Shown here: piece by piece, positions 2,797-53,941 of the stretch
Position numbering within the stretch: position 1 is the stretch's first letter
How the letters are laid out: each line of letters starts with the position of its first letter
Assembly (NCBI GenBank): GCA_013388755.1
Contig: JACAEQ010000091.1
Coordinates: forward strand, 1 to 57,350
Reading direction: 5' to 3'
Length of the DNA: 57,350 bases
From: Chloroflexota bacterium
Lineage (GTDB): Bacteria; Chloroflexota; Chloroflexia; Chloroflexales; Roseiflexaceae
Translations under genes and position numbers: made by a program
The notes under the pieces: model-generated
Told to the model about the DNA's origin: nothing
Database searches by the model: none
The model's input: only the letters and a program-made list of their open reading frames with translations

Positions 2797-5448
2797 GTGA
2801 TCGATACCCGGTCGCCACACGCAAGCGCGCAACCTGCATCGATTGTCACTGCACGGCACCGCACAGCCTGGGCATGGGCACTGGCATGTTTGATGGTAGC
2901 GGCCCTCGCCGCCAGCTTTGCCTTCGCCCCGGCAACCCTCCGCTTCAACGCCGCCGATCCGGCGGCTGCGCGCTACCTGGTCGCGTTCAGCGCCACCGAG
3001 TCGAACGAACGCGAGTCGTTCCGCTGGTCAGAACGCGACGCCACCCTGCGCCTGTTCGGTCTGACGCGCCGCCCGCTGATCGTGGAACTGCGCCTGGCGT
3101 CGCCCCGCCCGTCGGGCGCGGCACCTGCTGAGACGCGCCTTGCGCTGGGATCGTGGACCAGCAACCCATTCACGATCGCCAGCGACTGGCGGCGTTATAT
3201 GCTGATGCTTCCGCCGCGTCCCGGCGCGCCCGATCTGCAGCTCAACATCCGCACGTTTCGCCCGGCCAGGCCGGGTGATACGCGCCGCCTGGGCGCGGCC
3301 TTGAGTCAGGCGGCAATCTTCCCGGCCGATGGATTACCTGCCCCGGCTGGCTCAATCGCCACCCTCGGTGCGGTACGCGCCACAATTCTGATCCTCTTGC
3401 CGATTGCGGCGTTCGCCGCCACCGCCCGCCTGACACATAGCGCCGCGCGGTGGGTGGCTGCTGCAATCACTGCCCTGATGGCTGCCGCGGCAACCGCATG
3501 GCCGGTCGAGGCGATCGCGCTGCTGCCCGATCTCTGGCTGATCCCTGCCGGTGTCGCTACTGCCATCGGATTATACGTAGGCGCCCGGCCACGGTTCATG
3601 CCGATTCTGGCGCCCCTCTCCTGTCTCCTCGCAAGCGACGGAGCACGCCTCGGCGCGGTCCTTGCCATCGCCTGCATGCAAGGAATGATCTTCCTTCTCC
3701 TCGTACCGCCCTGGCAACACTACGATGAGCCGGCGCATTTTGAGTACGCCTGGTTGCTGGCGTTCCACCCTTCCTGGCCGAATCCCACGACGATCGACCC
3801 GGCCATTGCCGTGATCGGCGGTGAAGGTCGCGCGCTGTCACATCCGCCAGCATATCACCTGCTGGTCAGCCTGCCGCTCCGTGCCACCCGCGGGCTCGAC
3901 ATCGTTACACAGCTCTACCTCGCGCGGGGGGTGTCGTTTGCGCTCTTCATCGCCACCATTGCCGTAACTGGCGCGATCGCACGAACGATCACGTCGCCGG
4001 GGCATCCGCTCCGCTGGCGCGTACCGCTGGTTGCTGCCCTCGTTCCACCATTTGCCGACATTATGACATCGGTAAACAACGATGTCGGCGCAGTTTTCGC
4101 ATTCTCACTCTTCCTCTGGAGCGCAGTGCGGGCCATCATATCCGGCCTCACGGCCAGCCGCGCCACCTGGGTGATCGCGGCGGCGTTGCTGGCCGCCGCA
4201 ATGAAGAATGTCACGCTCGTTGCAGTGCCACTCGCGCCGGTCGTGCTGCTGGTCGCTCATGGCCTCAGGCGTCGCTGGCGCTGGCGCCGCCTGGTGGCCG
4301 GGGGAATGGCAACACTCATCGCCGTCGCGGCAGGCGCGATCGCCTGGGGCGATCCGGCGGCGTGGTATCGTTATGGGGCAGTCACTGCCAGTGGCCCGGC
4401 ACGCATCATGCTCCCCGAAGCGGTACATGGGCAATCCGCATTACATCTGAGCGCCGGCTTCTCACCCTATGAACCATCGGGGCTCGCAACGCCTGTGGCA
4501 TCCGGCGATCTGCCGTCGCTCGCAGGCGGCCCGGTCACAGTTGGCGCATGGGTCTGGGCATCGCGCCCCGCCAGCGTTGCCGGCCCCGGTGTGCTGTATA
4601 ACGACGGCACGAGCGACGTGCAACTCATCGCCCCACCCATTGACGCCACCACAACACCACGTTTCGCCGCCTGGACGTTCGATGCGCCGCGCGGGTTGAG
4701 TTCGCTGCAACTATTTCTTCCCGCACCGCCACTTGTTCCCGGCGAGCCGCCCCTCGAACTGTTTGTTGATGGCGTGGTTCTGGCGCGCGGATCATTTTCC
4801 GCCACCACACCGCCACGCCTCGATGAGATGGCCACAGGCGGAACCTGGGAAGGGAACCCTTTCACCAATCTTGTTCGCAATGCTTCGGCAGAACGGTCAT
4901 GGCCCTATGTGAGGCCGTCGGTAGAGCGCGCGTCATTCGCAATAGTGCGTCGTTCACCATCACGTATCGTTACCTCGTTACTCGATATCGGCCGCACGGG
5001 ACCGATCATCCTGTTCGAGGTCGCACCAGATCTGATCTACCGCTCATTTGCCACGTTTGGCTGGGGAGAGGTCGCCCTGCCAGGGTCAACCTGGCGAATC
5101 ATTGTTCCAGCCAGTCTGCTGCTGGCGCTGGCGGGTTGTGCCCGGCTGACCATGTCCTGCAATGTACGCGAACCACGCGCTGTGGCCGCGATTACTCTGA
5201 TGGCGATCGGAGCACTGGTATGGGGGAATGCCGCACTCCGCATCCTGCCTGCGCTGATCGCGCAACCGCCGCCATTCCCGCGCTACGGGTTTCCCGCCGT
5301 TACGTCACTGGCGCTGCTGCTGGCCGCCGGCTGGCCGGCACTCTGGCCGTTGCACCGGCGTGCCATTGCTGCAGCGACACTTGTGATCGGGTTGCTGATG
5401 CTCAATCTGCTGGCGTATGCCACAATCTGGTGGCGCTGGTATGTGTGA
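2797..5448 (+). CDS. Large polytopic membrane protein, DUF2142/glycosyltransferase-like
   Basis: An 883-residue protein with a GTG start and GAGG at 2785-2788, 8 nt upstream. An N-terminal membrane helix (residues about 25-45) is followed by a beta-rich soluble domain, then many membrane helices from about residue 185. The loop motif HYDEPAHF (D310, E311) resembles the acidic first-loop motif of DUF2142 and GT-C mannosyltransferase-like proteins. A second soluble, probably periplasmic, insertion lies at about residues 540-700, and helices return at the C-terminus. The likely role is transfer of a lipid-linked sugar or polymer assembly at the outer face of the membrane. It stands alone with its own extended -10 promoter. 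Substrate and exact family are uncertain. Confidence 0.7.
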   Translation: MIDTRSPHASAQPASIVTARHRTAWAWALACLMVAALAASFAFAPATLRFNAADPAAARYLVAFSATESNERESFRWSERDATLRLFGLTRRPLIVELRLASPRPSGAAPAETRLALGSWTSNPFTIASDWRRYMLMLPPRPGAPDLQLNIRTFRPARPGDTRRLGAALSQAAIFPADGLPAPAGSIATLGAVRATILILLPIAAFAATARLTHSAARWVAAAITALMAAAATAWPVEAIALLPDLWLIPAGVATAIGLYVGARPRFMPILAPLSCLLASDGARLGAVLAIACMQGMIFLLLVPPWQHYDEPAHFEYAWLLAFHPSWPNPTTIDPAIAVIGGEGRALSHPPAYHLLVSLPLRATRGLDIVTQLYLARGVSFALFIATIAVTGAIARTITSPGHPLRWRVPLVAALVPPFADIMTSVNNDVGAVFAFSLFLWSAVRAIISGLTASRATWVIAAALLAAAMKNVTLVAVPLAPVVLLVAHGLRRRWRWRRLVAGGMATLIAVAAGAIAWGDPAAWYRYGAVTASGPARIMLPEAVHGQSALHLSAGFSPYEPSGLATPVASGDLPSLAGGPVTVGAWVWASRPASVAGPGVLYNDGTSDVQLIAPPIDATTTPRFAAWTFDAPRGLSSLQLFLPAPPLVPGEPPLELFVDGVVLARGSFSATTPPRLDEMATGGTWEGNPFTNLVRNASAERSWPYVRPSVERASFAIVRRSPSRIVTSLLDIGRTGPIILFEVAPDLIYRSFATFGWGEVALPGSTWRIIVPASLLLALAGCARLTMSCNVREPRAVAAITLMAIGALVWGNAALRILPALIAQPPPFPRYGFPAVTSLALLLAAGWPALWPLHRRAIAAATLVIGLLMLNLLAYATIWWRWYV

Positions 5449-5521: not shown

Positions 5522-5654
5522 AATACCTTTCAAATAAGGCGTTATGCACCGCACAGCCCCCACCCGATCTCCCCCGCTGGGGGGCGGAGCCGCACTCCCT
5601 CCCCCGGCGGGGGAGGGCCGGAGTGGGGGGTGACGGGCGTATGTGAAAGGTATT
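5522..5654. repeat. Small palindromic element between convergent genes
   Basis: AATACCTTTCA (5522-5532) and its exact complement TGAAAGGTATT (5644-5654) bound a 133-bp GC-rich segment. Inside lies a strong stem (5597-5617) and CACCC/GGGGTG-type complementary flanks. The arrangement resembles a MITE or REP-type insertion in the convergent gap. Confidence 0.5.
5597..5617. terminator. GC hairpin between convergent genes
   Basis: A perfect 9-bp stem (CCCTCCCCC / GGGGGAGGG) closes a 3-nt GGC loop. It has no following T-run in either direction. Its place between convergent genes suggests it could stop transcription from both sides, but it may simply belong to the palindromic element. Confidence 0.45.
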
Positions 5655-5658
5655 GCCT

Positions 5659-7032
5659 CTAACCCCTGACCCCTGACCCCTGGCCCCTGACCACCGCCTG
5701 TACCGACTCGCCGATAATCGCGACGATCCGGTCCACCTGTTCTTCGGTCGTCACCAGCGGCGGTGCCAGCAGAATCATGTCGCCCAGCACTCGCGTATAC
5801 AGGCCGCGTTGCATCATTTCCTGATACACCCGCGCGCCGACGTTCGCCTCAACCGGATAGGCCTGCTTCGTCGCTTTGTCAGCCACCAGTTCGACCGCCG
5901 CCATCATTCCTTTGCCACGCACGTCGCCCACGCCGTCGAGTGTATACAGGGTGTGCAACCCCTGCAACAATCGTTCGCCCAGCGCCGCCCCACGCGCAAC
6001 AAGCCCTTCCTCCTCGATAATTTGCAGGTTGCGGAGCGCCACCGCGCAGCAAGTCGGATGCCCTGAATAGGTATAGGCATGCATATAGCGCTTATCCGGC
6101 GGCGCACTGTGGATCGCCTCGCGGATGCGGTCGGAAACGCCAATCCCACCCAGCGGCACATACCCGCTGGTGATACCCTTCGCAAACTGCACAATGTCCG
6201 GCTCGATGCCATAATGCTCGAGCGCAAACCAGCGCCCCGTACGGCCAAAACCGGTGATCACCTCGTCGGCAATCAACAGCACCTCATACCGGTCACAGAT
6301 CTCGCGAATGCGGGCGAAATAGTCGTCCTGCGGCGGGATGACCCCACCGGCGCCCTGCACCGGCTCGGCAATGAACGCCGCCACCGTCTCCGGCCCCTCG
6401 CGCAGGATCGCGTCCTCCAGCAGATTTGCCGCCGCCACGCCATCGCTTACCTCAGGCGTCCGGTTCACAAAGCGATATGGGTACGGCGACTCAATATGCA
6501 CAATACCTGGAACGCGCGGCTCAAACATCGGCCAGTACATCGGCAGGCCGGTTGCGCTCATCGCCGCCATGGTTACGCCATGATAGCCGCGCATGCGCGA
6601 GATGAACTTGACCTTGTCCGGCTTACCGGCCAGTTTCCAGTAGTAGCGCGCCGTCTTGAACGACGTCTCGGTCGATTCTGCGCCACCGCTGGTGAAGAAG
6701 AAGGTATTGATCGACGGGTACATCAACTCGCTGAGCCGCTCGGCCAGTTCAATCGCCGGCAGGTTCGACGAACCAGTGTACGACGAACAATAGGCCAGCG
6801 TCTCCATCTGCTCCGCCGCCGCCGCCGCCAGTTCGCGCCGGCCATGGCCAACGTTCACGTTCCACAGGCCGCTCAGGCCGTCAATATATTCGTGACCCTC
6901 AATATCGATCACGATCGCGCCGCGCCCCTTCACCCAGATCTTCGGCGCCTGGTGGCCACTGGGGTGATACAGCGGATGCAACAGGTGAGCCAGATCGCTC
7001 CGTGTCCGATCGGCGACGTCGATGGCGGTCAT
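5659..7032 (-). CDS. Class III (omega-amino acid) pyridoxal-phosphate aminotransferase
   Basis: A 457-residue cytosolic enzyme that probably transfers the amino group of an omega-amino acid or amine to pyruvate or another oxo acid. The ATG at 7032 is preferred over upstream codons because GGAGGG (7037-7042) lies 4 nt before it. Class III features are clear: the SGGAE cofactor loop, ADEVITGFGRTG with the cofactor-contacting Asp, and the Schiff-base lysine in QFAKGITSG (about K285). It is the last gene of the ABC transporter operon, 159 nt after the ATPase gene, so its substrate is probably the imported compound. Beta-alanine, GABA, putrescine or taurine are family options; the sequence does not decide. 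The C-terminal RGQGSGVRG tail is repeat-encoded and probably not functional. Confidence 0.88.
   Translation of the reverse strand: MTAIDVADRTRSDLAHLLHPLYHPSGHQAPKIWVKGRGAIVIDIEGHEYIDGLSGLWNVNVGHGRRELAAAAAEQMETLAYCSSYTGSSNLPAIELAERLSELMYPSINTFFFTSGGAESTETSFKTARYYWKLAGKPDKVKFISRMRGYHGVTMAAMSATGLPMYWPMFEPRVPGIVHIESPYPYRFVNRTPEVSDGVAAANLLEDAILREGPETVAAFIAEPVQGAGGVIPPQDDYFARIREICDRYEVLLIADEVITGFGRTGRWFALEHYGIEPDIVQFAKGITSGYVPLGGIGVSDRIREAIHSAPPDKRYMHAYTYSGHPTCCAVALRNLQIIEEEGLVARGAALGERLLQGLHTLYTLDGVGDVRGKGMMAAVELVADKATKQAYPVEANVGARVYQEMMQRGLYTRVLGDMILLAPPLVTTEEQVDRIVAIIGESVQAVVRGQGSGVRG
5660..5692. repeat. Tandem CCCCTGAC-type repeat overlapping a gene end
   Basis: About four copies of a 7-8 nt CCCCTGA(C) unit run in tandem. 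They overlap the last codons of the aminotransferase gene, whose C-terminal Gly/Arg-rich tail is translated from this repeat. Confidence 0.6.
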
Positions 7033-30731: not shown

Positions 30732-32417
30732 ATGGCAAAAAACAGAATACGCGCGATCCCTCTTGGCGGCGCCGGTGAAGTCGGGCGCAACATGTGGGTG
30801 CTGGAGCAGAATGACGAGATTCTGTTGCTCGACTGCGGCGTGATGTTCCCCGAAGCCGACATGCTCGGTGTTGATCTGGTGCTTCCCGATATCACCTACC
30901 TGCGTGAACAAAAGGACAAGATCAAGGCCATCATTCTGACCCATGGTCACGAGGATCATATCGGCGCCGTGCCGTATGTTCTGCCAGAACTTGACTTTCC
31001 GCCGGTGTATGGCACGCCGTTAACACTGGGCATCCTCACCGGCAAACTGAAAGAACATCGCTTACTTGACCGTGCGAATCTTGTGCGCTTCCAGGCCGGT
31101 GACAAACTGACCATCGGCTCCTTTACGGTCGAACCATTCCATGTTGCTCACTCGATCCCCGATACTGTGGGCCTGGCGATCGACACGCCCGTCGGCCTGG
31201 CGATCTATCTGACCGACTGGAAGTTCGATCATACGCCGGTGGATGGCCGGCCGACCGATCTGGTCAAGCTGTCGGAATTGGGCCAGCGATCACCGTTACT
31301 CCTGATCACCGACTGCGTGCGGGTCGAGTCGAAGGGGTATACGCCGAGCGAACAGGCCGTCGGCGAAGCGTTCGACTCAATATTTGCCACAGCGCCCGGC
31401 CGTATCATCATTGCAACATTCGCATCGAATATTTCGCGCGTGCAGCAGGTGATCGACTCGGCCGAAGCATATGGGCGCAAGGTCGTCGTCGCCGGGCGCA
31501 GTATGGAAAACAACAGCCGCATCGCCCTCGACCTCGGGTACCTGCGCGCCCAGCAGGGGACGCTGATCCGCCCGCAGGAAGCGGCCGGCCTGGCTGATGA
31601 CCAGGTTGCGGTCATCTGTACCGGTAGCCAGGGCGAACCGATGTCTGCGCTGGCTCGCATGGCAAACCGTGATTATCCGCACGTCAAGATCAAGGAGGGG
31701 GATACGGTCGTTGTATCGGCGACGCCGATCCCTGGCAACGAAGTGTCGGTCAACCGGGTGATCAACAACCTCTTCCGCCTTGGCGCCGATGTCATCTACG
31801 GCGGCGGGCCGGCAGGAGCCGCCGTTCATGTCTCCGGCCACGCGGCGCAGGAAGAACTCAAAATGGTGCTCGCTATTCTGCGCCCGGAATTTGTGGTGCC
31901 GTTCCATGGCGACTACCGCCACATGATGCTGTACCGCAAACTGGCGCTCGGTATGGGCGGGATGTTCGCCGAAACGAATGTGATCATTCCTGAGAATGGC
32001 GCCGTCATGGAGTTTAGCCGCAACTATGTGAAAACCACCGGCAAGGCACCCGTCGGCTACGTGTATGTGGACGGAACGACCGTGGGCGATGTCGGCCACG
32101 TGGTCGTGCGTGACCGGCAACTCCTGGCGCGCGATGGCATTTTGATGGTTGTCGTGAGCATCGACCGGACGACCGGCGAACTTGTTGCCGGCCCTGATGT
32201 GGTCTCACGCGGTTTTGTCTACATGCGCCAATCGGACGACTTGATCGAGTCGACAAAGGGGATCGTGCGCGATGCGTTGCTGAAACGCAACGGCGGCGGC
32301 AGAACCGAAACGGATAGCGCCTTTGTCAATCGCAAGATCAAAGATGTCGTCAGTGAATATCTCTACGGCCAGACCCGCCGCCGCCCGATGGTGTTGCCGG
32401 TGGTTATGGAAGTCTAA
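30732..32417 (+). CDS. rnj: Ribonuclease J
   Basis: A 561-residue metallo-beta-lactamase/beta-CASP nuclease with 5'-to-3' exo- and endonuclease activity in mRNA decay and rRNA maturation. The zinc motif HGHEDH (71-76) is intact, as are FHVAHSIPD, the beta-CASP segment IATFASNISRVQQ and VPFHGDYRHM. Length matches the family. ATG 30732 starts the conserved core (MAKNRIRAIPLGG); the frame opens to 30609 and also has an ATG at 30702, but neither has better support. Its presence with PNPase at 51.7 kb shows an RNase J-based decay system. Confidence 0.95.
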   Translation: MAKNRIRAIPLGGAGEVGRNMWVLEQNDEILLLDCGVMFPEADMLGVDLVLPDITYLREQKDKIKAIILTHGHEDHIGAVPYVLPELDFPPVYGTPLTLGILTGKLKEHRLLDRANLVRFQAGDKLTIGSFTVEPFHVAHSIPDTVGLAIDTPVGLAIYLTDWKFDHTPVDGRPTDLVKLSELGQRSPLLLITDCVRVESKGYTPSEQAVGEAFDSIFATAPGRIIIATFASNISRVQQVIDSAEAYGRKVVVAGRSMENNSRIALDLGYLRAQQGTLIRPQEAAGLADDQVAVICTGSQGEPMSALARMANRDYPHVKIKEGDTVVVSATPIPGNEVSVNRVINNLFRLGADVIYGGGPAGAAVHVSGHAAQEELKMVLAILRPEFVVPFHGDYRHMMLYRKLALGMGGMFAETNVIIPENGAVMEFSRNYVKTTGKAPVGYVYVDGTTVGDVGHVVVRDRQLLARDGILMVVVSIDRTTGELVAGPDVVSRGFVYMRQSDDLIESTKGIVRDALLKRNGGGRTETDSAFVNRKIKDVVSEYLYGQTRRRPMVLPVVMEV

Positions 32418-50940: not shown

Positions 50941-51100
50941 CTGGTGGACGACTCGCAACAATGCTCTTGCTTTCGGCAGAGCGGCACAGGCGGATCGCAA
51001 GTCTCTCGTGCCGCTTGCAAGCCGCCCCTCCACCGAAGTACCACGCTGCCGTGTAACCGTGTCACCGGCAATGTGGCAATGTGCGCGAACGTATATCTTA

Positions 51101-51109
51101 TGGTATACT
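51101..51109 (+). promoter_or_regulatory. Extended -10 promoter of rpsO
   Basis: TGGTATACT; no good -35. Start near 51116, leader about 65 nt. Confidence 0.55.
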
Positions 51110-51180
51110 TTTCTACGGCTTGCAACAGGCAAACGACAGGCTGCGCCGGCCTGATCGCGATTAGTGTAAGGAGTTTCTCC

Positions 51181-51450
51181 GTGGCGCTGGAAAAAGACGA
51201 AAAGACGACGATCATCGCTGATTATCAGGTGCACAGCACCGATACCGGCTCACCACAGGTGCAGGTCGCATTACTGACGGAACGGATCAACGGCCTGATC
51301 GAGCACCTGAAGATCCACGCGCACGATCATCACTCACGACGCGGGTTGCTGAAACTGGTCGGGCGGCGCCGGCGATTGCTGGCGTATCTTGCCGGTAAGG
51401 ATAAAGAAAGCTACCGGAAGTTGATCGAGAGTCTGGGGTTGCGCCGGTAA
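51181..51450 (+). CDS. rpsO: 30S ribosomal protein S15
   Basis: An 89-residue protein of exact family length. It contains the S15 hallmarks [22 protein letters not shown] and [18 protein letters not shown] ending in [13 protein letters not shown]15 binds 16S rRNA early in small-subunit assembly. GTG start with AAGGAG at 7 nt. Followed by a terminator-like stem and pnp, the same order as in many bacteria. Confidence 0.97.
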
Positions 51451-51523
51451 CACCATGCAGGGTGTCACACTATCTGATCCCGTCAGAGCGCCGGAAGGCA
51501 ACGAAGGTCGTATTGCATGATAC

Positions 51524-51555
51524 CGCGGACCCGGGGCGCGTTCCCTGGGTCCGCG
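51524..51555 (+). terminator. Hairpin between rpsO and pnp
   Basis: CGCGGACCC (51524-51532) pairs perfectly with GGGTCCGCG (51547-51555); the loop has a further short GGGG/CCC complement. Only a weak T-rich tail (CTTGTTG) follows, so termination may be partial and allow read-through into pnp. Confidence 0.6.
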
Positions 51556-51581
51556 CTTGTTGCAGGCAGGTTGTCAGGTTG

Positions 51582-51651
51582 CGGGTCGTTAGGGATTGGA
51601 GCTTGTGGTTGAATCATCATTCAAACACAGCCTCCAGTACCTAACGTCCCG
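51582..51651 (+). promoter_or_regulatory. Long imperfect hairpin in the pnp leader
   Basis: A symmetric 70-nt stem: CGGG/CCCG, CGTTAGG/CCTAACG, GGAG/CTCC, TGTG/CACA and TTGAAT/ATTCAA pair in order, separated by symmetric internal loops of 1, 4, 2 and 1 nt, around a CATC tetraloop. It ends 37 nt before the pnp ATG. Long irregular stems at this place are cut by RNase III in E. coli to allow PNPase autoregulation; the same role is inferred here. Confidence 0.65.
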
Positions 51652-51688
51652 TGTTGGGTCGGGTAAGACCCACATGTAAGGAAGGAAC

Positions 51689-53941
51689 ATGTCAGAACGT
51701 CAGGTACACGCGGTGAGCGCCGAGATCGCTGGCCGCACGCTAACACTGGAGACGGGCCGGCTCGCTGAACAGGCCGATGGTGCGGTAACCGTCCGGTACG
51801 GCGATACGGTCTTGCTGGCAACGGTCGTCGCCTCGAAGGAACCTCGCCCGGGGGTTGACTTCTTCCCGCTGACCGTTGATTACGAAGAGAAGATGTATGC
51901 CGCCGGCAAGATTCCCGGCAGCTTCTTCAAGCGCGAGGGGAAGCCCACAGAGAACGCCATCCTCACCGCCCGCCTCACCGATCGCCCACTCCGCCCGCTG
52001 TTTCCCGAAGGGTATCGTAACGAGGTTCAGGTCATCGTCACCACATTTTCGATCGATATGGTGAATGACCCCGGCCCGCTGGCGATTATCGGCGCCTCGG
52101 CGGCGCTGGCAATCTCCGATATCCCGTTCCTTGGCCCGGTCGGCGCGGTACAGGTCGGCTATATTGATGGCCAGTTGCAGGTCAACCCGACCATGTCCGA
52201 CATGGTCAACAGCCGGCTTGACCTGGTGGTTGCCGGTACGCGCGACGCGGTGCTGATGGTCGAGGCTGGAGCGAAAGAACTGTCCGAGGAGGTGATGCTT
52301 GAGGCAGTCATTCAGGGCCATGCTGTCTGCAAGCAACTCTGCGATTTGCAGAATGAACTGGTGCGGCTGGCCGGGCGTCCGAAACGGGAGTTTACGCCGC
52401 CGCCAGTTGACACGTCGCTTGAGCAGGCGATTGCAGCCTGGATGGGCAACCGGCTGTACGAAGCGATCACCGACTCGAACAAGACGATACGCGATCAACA
52501 GACCCAGGCGCTCAAGCAGGAAGTGATCGCCCACTTTACCGCCGATGAGCCGGAGGAAGAAGTGGCAGCACGCACTGCCGCGGTTTCCGAGGCTTTCGAG
52601 AATCTGCTCTACGAGCAAGTGCGCCGCATGATCCTCGATAGCGGCGAGCGTGTTGACGGGCGTGGGCCAAAGGACATCCGGCCAATCTCCGTCGAGGTGG
52701 GCCTCATCCCGCGGGTCCATGGCTCCGGTCTGTTTACTCGCGGCCAGACCCAGGTGCTCACGATTGCGACCCTCGGTTCGCCGGGCGATGAACAGCGCCT
52801 CGATGACCTGGGGATTGAGACGACCAAGCGCTATATTCACCATTATAACTTCCCACCATTCAGCACCGGTGAAGTGAAGCGGCTTGGCTCGCCACGCCGG
52901 CGCGACATTGGGCACGGCGCGCTGGCCGAGCGCTCCTTGCTGGCCGTGCTACCACCAAAGGAAGAGTTCGCCTATACGATGCGCCTCGTGTCCGAGACGC
53001 TGTCGTCCAATGGCTCTTCATCAATGGCATCGGTCTGTGGCTCGACGCTGGCGCTGATGGATGCCGGCGTTCCGATCAAAGCGCCGGTGGCCGGCGTCGC
53101 GATGGGCCTGATTACTGCCAGCGACGGTCGCTGGCGCGTGCTGACCGATATTCAGGGTATTGAGGATCACCTCGGCGACATGGATTTCAAGGTCGCCGGG
53201 ACAGCCGATGGCATTACCGGTCTACAGATGGACATCAAAACGACCGGGATCACATATGACATCATGCGTGAAGCGTTTGCCCAGACGCGCGAAGGCCGGT
53301 TATACATCCTCGATAAGATGAATGCGGTGATTAACGCGCCGCGCCGTGAGATGTCGCCATATGCACCGCGAATCATCACGCTGCAGATCAACCCCGACAA
53401 GATCGGCGCATTGATTGGTCCGGGTGGCAAGACGATCCGCGGTATCACGGAAGCCACCGGGGCACAGATTGATGTTGAAGATGATGGGCGGGTCTTCGTT
53501 TCAACTGCCGACGGCGAGGCGGCGCAACAGGCTGTTGCAATGATTGAGGCGCTGACACGCGAGATCAAGGTCGGTGACATCTTCCTGGGCAAGGTCGTGC
53601 GCATCATGCCGTTTGGCGCCTTCGTGAACCTTGTACCGGGCAAGGATGGTATGGTGCACGTCTCCGAACTCGATGTCAGCCGGGTCGAGAACGTCGAAGA
53701 CGTCGTCAAAATGGGCGATGAGATCAATGTGATGGTGATCGGGATCGAGCCCGGCACCGGTAAGGTGAGCCTGTCGCGCCGCGCGCTGCTGACAGGTGAG
53801 ACGGCGGAGGACCGGCGGGCGGCGGGCGCCGGGCGTGGCCTGCGTGATGGTGGGGCGCGTGGCAGCGATCGTGGCTCGCGCGGCGACGGCGATCGTGGCC
53901 CACGCGGCGATGGCGATCGCCAGCGCCCCCGACGGCGGTAA
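51689..53941 (+). CDS. pnp: Polyribonucleotide nucleotidyltransferase (PNPase)
   Basis: A 750-residue trimeric 3'-to-5' phosphorolytic exoribonuclease. Two RNase PH domains flank a helical linker; the second carries RRRDIGHGALAERSL and the catalytic DIQGIEDHLGDMDFK. A KH domain (GALIGPGGKTI, about 570) and an S1 domain (about 629-700, MPFGAFVNLVPGKDGMVHVSEL) follow. The last 35 residues are Arg/Gly/Asp-rich and probably disordered. ATG 51689 has AAGGAAGG upstream. Confidence 0.97.
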   Translation: MSERQVHAVSAEIAGRTLTLETGRLAEQADGAVTVRYGDTVLLATVVASKEPRPGVDFFPLTVDYEEKMYAAGKIPGSFFKREGKPTENAILTARLTDRPLRPLFPEGYRNEVQVIVTTFSIDMVNDPGPLAIIGASAALAISDIPFLGPVGAVQVGYIDGQLQVNPTMSDMVNSRLDLVVAGTRDAVLMVEAGAKELSEEVMLEAVIQGHAVCKQLCDLQNELVRLAGRPKREFTPPPVDTSLEQAIAAWMGNRLYEAITDSNKTIRDQQTQALKQEVIAHFTADEPEEEVAARTAAVSEAFENLLYEQVRRMILDSGERVDGRGPKDIRPISVEVGLIPRVHGSGLFTRGQTQVLTIATLGSPGDEQRLDDLGIETTKRYIHHYNFPPFSTGEVKRLGSPRRRDIGHGALAERSLLAVLPPKEEFAYTMRLVSETLSSNGSSSMASVCGSTLALMDAGVPIKAPVAGVAMGLITASDGRWRVLTDIQGIEDHLGDMDFKVAGTADGITGLQMDIKTTGITYDIMREAFAQTREGRLYILDKMNAVINAPRREMSPYAPRIITLQINPDKIGALIGPGGKTIRGITEATGAQIDVEDDGRVFVSTADGEAAQQAVAMIEALTREIKVGDIFLGKVVRIMPFGAFVNLVPGKDGMVHVSELDVSRVENVEDVVKMGDEINVMVIGIEPGTGKVSLSRRALLTGETAEDRRAAGAGRGLRDGGARGSDRGSRGDGDRGPRGDGDRQRPRRR

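What the first reader, a model, noticed from the sequence alone, without database searches (positions are those of the whole stretch)
51582..51651. Symmetric 70-nt hairpin in the pnp leader
Twenty-five base pairs in five blocks with only symmetric internal loops lie between the rpsO terminator stem and the pnp start codon. In E. coli a long leader stem at the same place is cut by RNase III and controls PNPase autoregulation. Seeing an equivalent structure in an RNase J-containing lineage suggests independent or ancient conservation.
Basis: partly seen in the sequence, partly recalled or inferred. Interest (0 to 1): 0.62.

Follow-up and report, generated by a model that had tools for sequence, protein, structure and literature searches.

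The report
Conserved RNA hairpin before pnp gene
The hairpin in front of the gene for the RNA-degrading enzyme PNPase is real and is kept, through compensating mutations, in many bacteria of the phylum Chloroflexota, so it is very probably a control element setting how much PNPase the cell makes, as comparable hairpins do in E. coli and Streptomyces.

Summary
The hairpin is real: 28 base pairs in five blocks, -39.3 kcal/mol, z -9.6, single copy in its genome. The core GGRAUUGG...CCAGURCC precedes pnp in 55 of 57 relatives of the same order. It covaries strongly: 20 of 26 pairs show two-sided compensatory changes, no shuffle of 500 reaches the observed score, and the signal collapses when the register is slid. 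A covariance model finds it in 87 of 400 Chloroflexota genomes; of 20 outlying hits inspected, 19 adjoin pnp. It stays with pnp in two genomes without rpsO directly upstream. The core has two odd, apparently selected features: a U.G wobble that is never replaced and, two pairs below it, a 1x1 mismatch kept unpaired (2 standard pairs seen, 16.8 expected). It matches no Rfam family and no pnp leader tested outside the phylum. Best explanation: a cis-acting pnp leader element cut by RNase III and feeding PNPase autoregulation, as in E. coli and Streptomyces. The genome has RNase III and RNase J and no RNase E/G match. Cleavage and autoregulation are inferred, not shown. An added anti-Shine-Dalgarno switch is supported only in one family, not in this genome. 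New RNA family of a known kind.

The parts
51181..51450 (+). rpsO (ribosomal protein S15), GTG start; upstream gene of the operon
   Evidence: ORF; tblastn of this protein finds it upstream of pnp in nearly all relatives
51581..51652 (+). pnp leader hairpin, 28-29 bp, with symmetric internal loops; covarying RNA element
51592..51599 (+). 5' half of the conserved core, GGGATTGG; G51594 is the 5' side of the kept 1x1 mismatch, U51596 the 5' side of the invariant U.G pair
51634..51641 (+). 3' half of the conserved core, CCAGTACC; A51639 is the 3' side of the mismatch, G51637 the partner of U51596
   Evidence: mismatch avoidance
51655..51672 (+). small second hairpin between the large hairpin and the ribosome-binding site; a short hairpin recurs at this position in relatives with different sequence
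   Evidence: folds; covariation not established
51678..51686 (+). Shine-Dalgarno region AAGGAAGGA of pnp
   Evidence: sequence; positions in relatives
51689..53941 (+). pnp (polynucleotide phosphorylase), the gene the element precedes
   Evidence: ORF; relatives

Best explanation
This is a cis-acting structured RNA element in the pnp mRNA leader, conserved in much of the phylum Chloroflexota. Most likely RNase III cuts the stem in or near the conserved core. That leaves the 5' arm fragment annealed to the new 5' end of the pnp mRNA. PNPase then removes that fragment 3' to 5', which exposes the leader to decay or to a translational block, so that PNPase limits its own synthesis. Shown here: the structure, its covariation, a conserved core with a kept mismatch and an invariant wobble, linkage to pnp, uniqueness in the genome, and presence of an RNase III gene. 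Inferred from E. coli and Streptomyces: cleavage by RNase III, removal by PNPase, and feedback.
For: Hairpin far more stable than shuffles and better on the sense strand. 20 of 26 pairs with two-sided changes, covariation score 0.524 against 0.176 in shuffles, 0/500, and 0.09-0.16 in slid registers; again 0.514 against 0.188 on a phylum-wide set. Core upstream of pnp in 54 of 57 relatives by pattern and in one more by model. In 87 of 400 phylum genomes; 19 of 20 inspected outlying hits adjoin pnp, two of them without rpsO in about 1 kb upstream. Constant mid-stem with free apex fits an enzyme that reads a helix. RNase III present here and in 45 of 46 good-quality relatives. Precedent: RNase III cuts the rpsO-pnp hairpin in E. 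coli and S. coelicolor, and PNPase activity rises 2-4 fold in the S. coelicolor rnc mutant (PMC10126417).
Against: No cleavage, transcript or mutant data for any Chloroflexota. No sequence match to the E. coli leader or to Actino-pnp. Some relatives with RNase III lack the hairpin (G051), so it is not indispensable. The near-invariant core is more than an RNase III stem in E. coli seems to need, which leaves room for another reader of the core. Sequences were partly found through the core, so its invariance is overstated.
Confidence: 0.62

Rival explanations
1. The conserved core is the binding site of another protein (PNPase itself through its KH/S1 domains, S15, or an unknown factor) that controls pnp translation or stability without cutting by RNase III.
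For: Invariant core with a U.G wobble never replaced and a mismatch kept unpaired looks like sequence-specific reading, which bacterial RNase III is not known to need.
Against: A stem of this length would be expected to be an RNase III substrate in any case. The S15 leader family does not match the region, there is no three-way junction, and the hairpin stays with pnp where rpsO is not directly upstream.
Confidence: 0.22
2. The hairpin is an RNA switch for translation: when the 5' arm is removed, the freed basal 3' arm acts as an anti-Shine-Dalgarno and blocks pnp translation (an extension of the best explanation rather than its opposite).
For: In family f4 the basal 3' arm pairs with the Shine-Dalgarno far better than chance (-11.6 against -6.9 kcal/mol shuffled and -5.5 for arms of other families, 4 of 4 genera), e.g. 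CCTCCGG with CCGGAGG in genus g12. Over 46 leaders predicted Shine-Dalgarno accessibility falls from 0.55 to 0.45 when the 5' arm is removed.
Against: In the stricter genus-level test there is no signal against other families overall (p 0.44), none in f3, and none in the window's own leader (p 0.47). Relatedness was only partly controlled.
Confidence: 0.15
3. The hairpin is an rpsO 3'-end structure (terminator or barrier to exonucleases) and has no role in pnp control.
For: It is a strong stem between two genes of one operon, and a second GC-rich stem lies just upstream.
Against: No T-run and no terminator-like site scored. It stays with pnp where rpsO is not directly upstream. A barrier would not need an invariant mid-stem core.
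Confidence: 0.06
4. It is a mobile or dispersed palindrome that happens to lie before pnp.
For: Some genomes of genus g12 do hold dispersed palindromes that score weakly with the model.
Against: Single copy in this genome; same place in 55 of 57 relatives; the dispersed palindromes score on both strands, mostly lack the core and are not near pnp.
Confidence: 0.01

Closest known systems
E. coli pnp leader hairpin (RNase III processing and PNPase autocontrol; Jarrige et al. 2001, cited in PMC2864571 and PMC3997798)
   Same: Long imperfect stem between rpsO and pnp, upstream of the pnp start; RNase III encoded in the genome.
   Different: No detectable sequence or model similarity (E. coli leader L206 not matched by R2); here there is a near-invariant core with a kept mismatch; the genome has RNase J and no RNase E/G match.
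Streptomyces rpsO-pnp intergenic hairpin (RNase III cuts at an internal loop; PMC10126417)
   Same: Same operon position; internal loops in the stem; RNase J-bearing lineage; RNase III lowers PNPase there.
   Different: Cut at a 4/4 internal loop there; here the loops are 1x1 and 2x2. No cleavage data here.
Actino-pnp RNA motif, Rfam RF01688 (Weinberg et al. 2010, PMC2864571)
   Same: Conserved structured RNA upstream of pnp in one bacterial group, classed there as cis-regulatory.
   Different: The RF01688 model does not match this hairpin: best in the genome 17.5 bits at another place, cut-off 47.7, and no match in the region.

Membership tests
RNase III-processed, PNPase-autoregulated pnp leader (E. 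coli type) | Long stem in the leader between rpsO and the pnp start codon | tested here: met
RNase III-processed, PNPase-autoregulated pnp leader (E. coli type) | RNase III encoded in the genome | tested here: met
   TIGR02191 over cut-off, G000:C33:16866-17528
RNase III-processed, PNPase-autoregulated pnp leader (E. coli type) | Mapped RNase III cuts in the stem | not testable with these tools
   needs in vitro cleavage or 5'-end mapping
RNase III-processed, PNPase-autoregulated pnp leader (E. coli type) | pnp expression rises in rnc or pnp mutants | not testable with these tools
   no expression data
RNase III-processed, PNPase-autoregulated pnp leader (E. coli type) | Common descent with the E. 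coli leader element | tested here: not met
   R2 does not match the E. coli leader L206 at E <= 5
Actino-pnp (RF01688) | Model score above 47.7 bits | tested here: not met
   17.5 bits at an unrelated place; no match in 51000-52000
S15 leader (RF00114) | Match to the S15 leader model | tested here: not met
   no match at E <= 5 in 51000-52000, while E. coli rpsO is matched
Intrinsic terminator | GC-rich stem followed by a run of T | tested here: not met
Dispersed palindromic repeat | Further copies in the genome | tested here: not met

The most novel reading that the evidence does not exclude
The core, with its mismatch kept unpaired and its irreplaceable U.G wobble, is a sequence-specific recognition signal for RNase III (or PNPase) in Chloroflexota; and in f4-type leaders removal of the 5' arm frees an anti-Shine-Dalgarno that shuts off pnp translation, so that PNPase acts as the sensor of an RNA switch.
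Probability: 0.15. Interest if true: 0.72.

Novelty: new member of a known kind. Interest (0 to 1): 0.5.

Why it matters
It adds a covariation-supported RNA family, absent from Rfam 15, to the small set of pnp leader elements, in a deep-branching phylum whose RNA decay is little studied. If it works as inferred, PNPase feedback through an RNase III hairpin exists with unrelated sequences in E. coli, Actinobacteria and Chloroflexota, which points to repeated invention or constant rebuilding. The kept mismatch beside an invariant wobble gives an exact, mutable handle on how a bacterial RNase III, or another reader, picks its site.

Tried and rejected
Mobile palindrome: rejected. Intrinsic terminator: rejected. 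Rfam: only chance miRNA and snoRNA hits. Actino-pnp: no match; Actino-pnp examples could not be fetched for a direct comparison. Spread to other phyla: none with R1 or R2 on the pnp contigs held from Bacillota, Pseudomonadota, Cloacimonadota, Armatimonadota, Actinomycetota and E. coli. By eye, leaders L084, L102 and L103 have long stems with a mismatch near AGUC, but the models give no support for kinship. Anti-Shine-Dalgarno switch: looked general at first, but a stricter genus-level test left it only in family f4. Small second hairpin: its position recurs, but MAFFT did not bring the stems into register, so no covariation claim is made. Own promoter for pnp: no sigma-70-like site found. Literature: no study of a Chloroflexota pnp leader found in the held library. 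In the first extraction loci of minus-strand matches were read in the wrong orientation; this was corrected.

Full report
Observation. Window 51582-51651 folds into one hairpin of 28 pairs in five blocks with three 1x1 loops and one 2x2 loop, -39.3 kcal/mol, z -9.57, no shuffle as stable; flanks add a G.U pair. The sense strand is the better folder. A sweep of the window in steps of 5 finds 51 of 11,456 70-nt stretches at least as stable; the best eight of these fall at two places, near 5561 and 11201. The hairpin begins 131 nt after rpsO and ends 37 nt before the pnp ATG.

Uniqueness. BLAST finds only this copy in the genome, and a covariance model built from relatives finds only this site, on both strands.

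Relatives. pnp was found in 57 of 60 genomes drawn from the same family and order. The leaders were fetched and oriented. A core GGRATTGG...CCAGTRCC lies upstream of pnp in 54 of the 57. Of the other three, G026 carries it with a long apex, G008 is cut by the contig end, and G051 lacks it. The apex varies in length while the mid-stem stays. L032, Herpetosiphon llansteffanensis, lies on a contig of the same length as that of G030, which with the other named hits places the set in Chloroflexota.

Covariation. On 34 sequences RNAalifold predicts the same stem, with 20 of 26 pairs showing compensatory changes. Counted against controls: 90.3% of cells paired, covariation score 0.524 against 0.176 in shuffles, 0/500 reaching it, and 0.09-0.16 when the register is slid by 1-3 columns. 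A second, phylum-wide set of 36 gives 88.3% and 0.514 against 0.188, again 0/500. The invariant core pairs say nothing by covariation. Most sequences were found through the core, so its invariance is partly a product of the search.

Core anatomy. In 54 sequences the core reads GG-N-AUUG-R ... Y-CAGU-N-CC, with one or two exceptions. R-Y switches between G-C and A-U. The U.G pair is U.G in all 36 sequences of the phylum-wide set. The N.N position takes nine combinations but forms a standard pair in only 2 of 54, against 16.8 expected from the same letters shuffled (0/5000; relatedness is not corrected for). So the mismatch seems to be kept as a mismatch, and the wobble as a wobble. In the window these are G51594/A51639 and U51596.G51637.

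Distribution. R1 finds the element in 79 (E <= 0.01), and R2 in 87 (E <= 0.001), of 400 genomes drawn evenly from the phylum; these searches use strict filters and are lower bounds. Of 20 outlying hits fetched, 19 lie just before pnp. In G319 and G269 no rpsO lies in the about 1 kb fetched upstream, and the hairpin is still before pnp, so it goes with pnp rather than with rpsO. Weak extra hits in G031, G037 and G055 score on both strands, almost all lack the core, and are not near pnp. Outside Chloroflexota nothing convincing matches among the pnp contigs held, E. coli included.

Enzymes. The genome has RNase III over the curated cut-off, RNase J inside the window at 30750-32408, and no match to RNase E/G.

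Mechanism. Precedent: in E. coli and S. coelicolor the rpsO-pnp hairpin is cut by RNase III, and PNPase activity rises 2-4 fold in the S. coelicolor rnc mutant (PMC10126417). In E. [quoted passage not shown] 2001, in the reference list of PMC2864571; the detail of the arm-removal step is from my own knowledge). The same steps are inferred here by analogy. A fixed mid-stem core with a free apex fits an enzyme that reads a helix. None of the biochemical steps is shown.

Anti-Shine-Dalgarno test. Some leaders could pair the freed basal 3' arm with the Shine-Dalgarno. A first test over 46 leaders was positive. A stricter one over 19 genera left a clear signal only in family f4 (own -11.6, shuffled -6.9, other families -5.5 kcal/mol) and none in the window's own leader. 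I treat it as a possible lineage-specific addition.

Known families. No Rfam match, not Actino-pnp, not an intrinsic terminator. I file it as a new RNA family of a known kind: pnp leader hairpins. It works like the E. coli and Streptomyces elements by inference; it is not shown to be related to either.

Noticed in passing
window 5543-5641: Very long GC-rich hairpin (-80 kcal/mol over 111 nt, z -6.4) between a + strand ORF ending at 5448 and a - strand ORF ending at 5659, i.e. between convergent gene ends.
   Followed up: no
window 30750-32408: RNase J gene in the same window as rpsO-pnp; whether the two RNase loci are linked in other Chloroflexota was not tested.
   Followed up: no
L169-L176 (genomes G031, G037 and G055): Dispersed palindromic repeats of GGGGTTGGGG/CCCCAACCCC type near murG-like and aceA-like genes; they score weakly with the model on both strands.
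   Followed up: partly
L206 328-499: The E. coli rpsO-pnp spacer carries the antisense small RNA SraG (RF00082) over its own hairpin. Whether Chloroflexota have an antisense transcript here is unknown.
   Followed up: no
L084, L102, L103: Cloacimonadota and Armatimonadota pnp leaders hold long stems with a single mismatch next to AGUC on the 3' arm, resembling the core by eye only; the models do not match them.
   Followed up: partly
G043, G049, G053 (family f4, genus g17): The hairpin sits about 190-250 nt from the pnp start instead of about 45-100 nt, so extra sequence lies between hairpin and gene.
   Followed up: no
window 51655-51672: A short second hairpin recurs at the same place before the ribosome-binding site in relatives, with different sequences.
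   Followed up: partly
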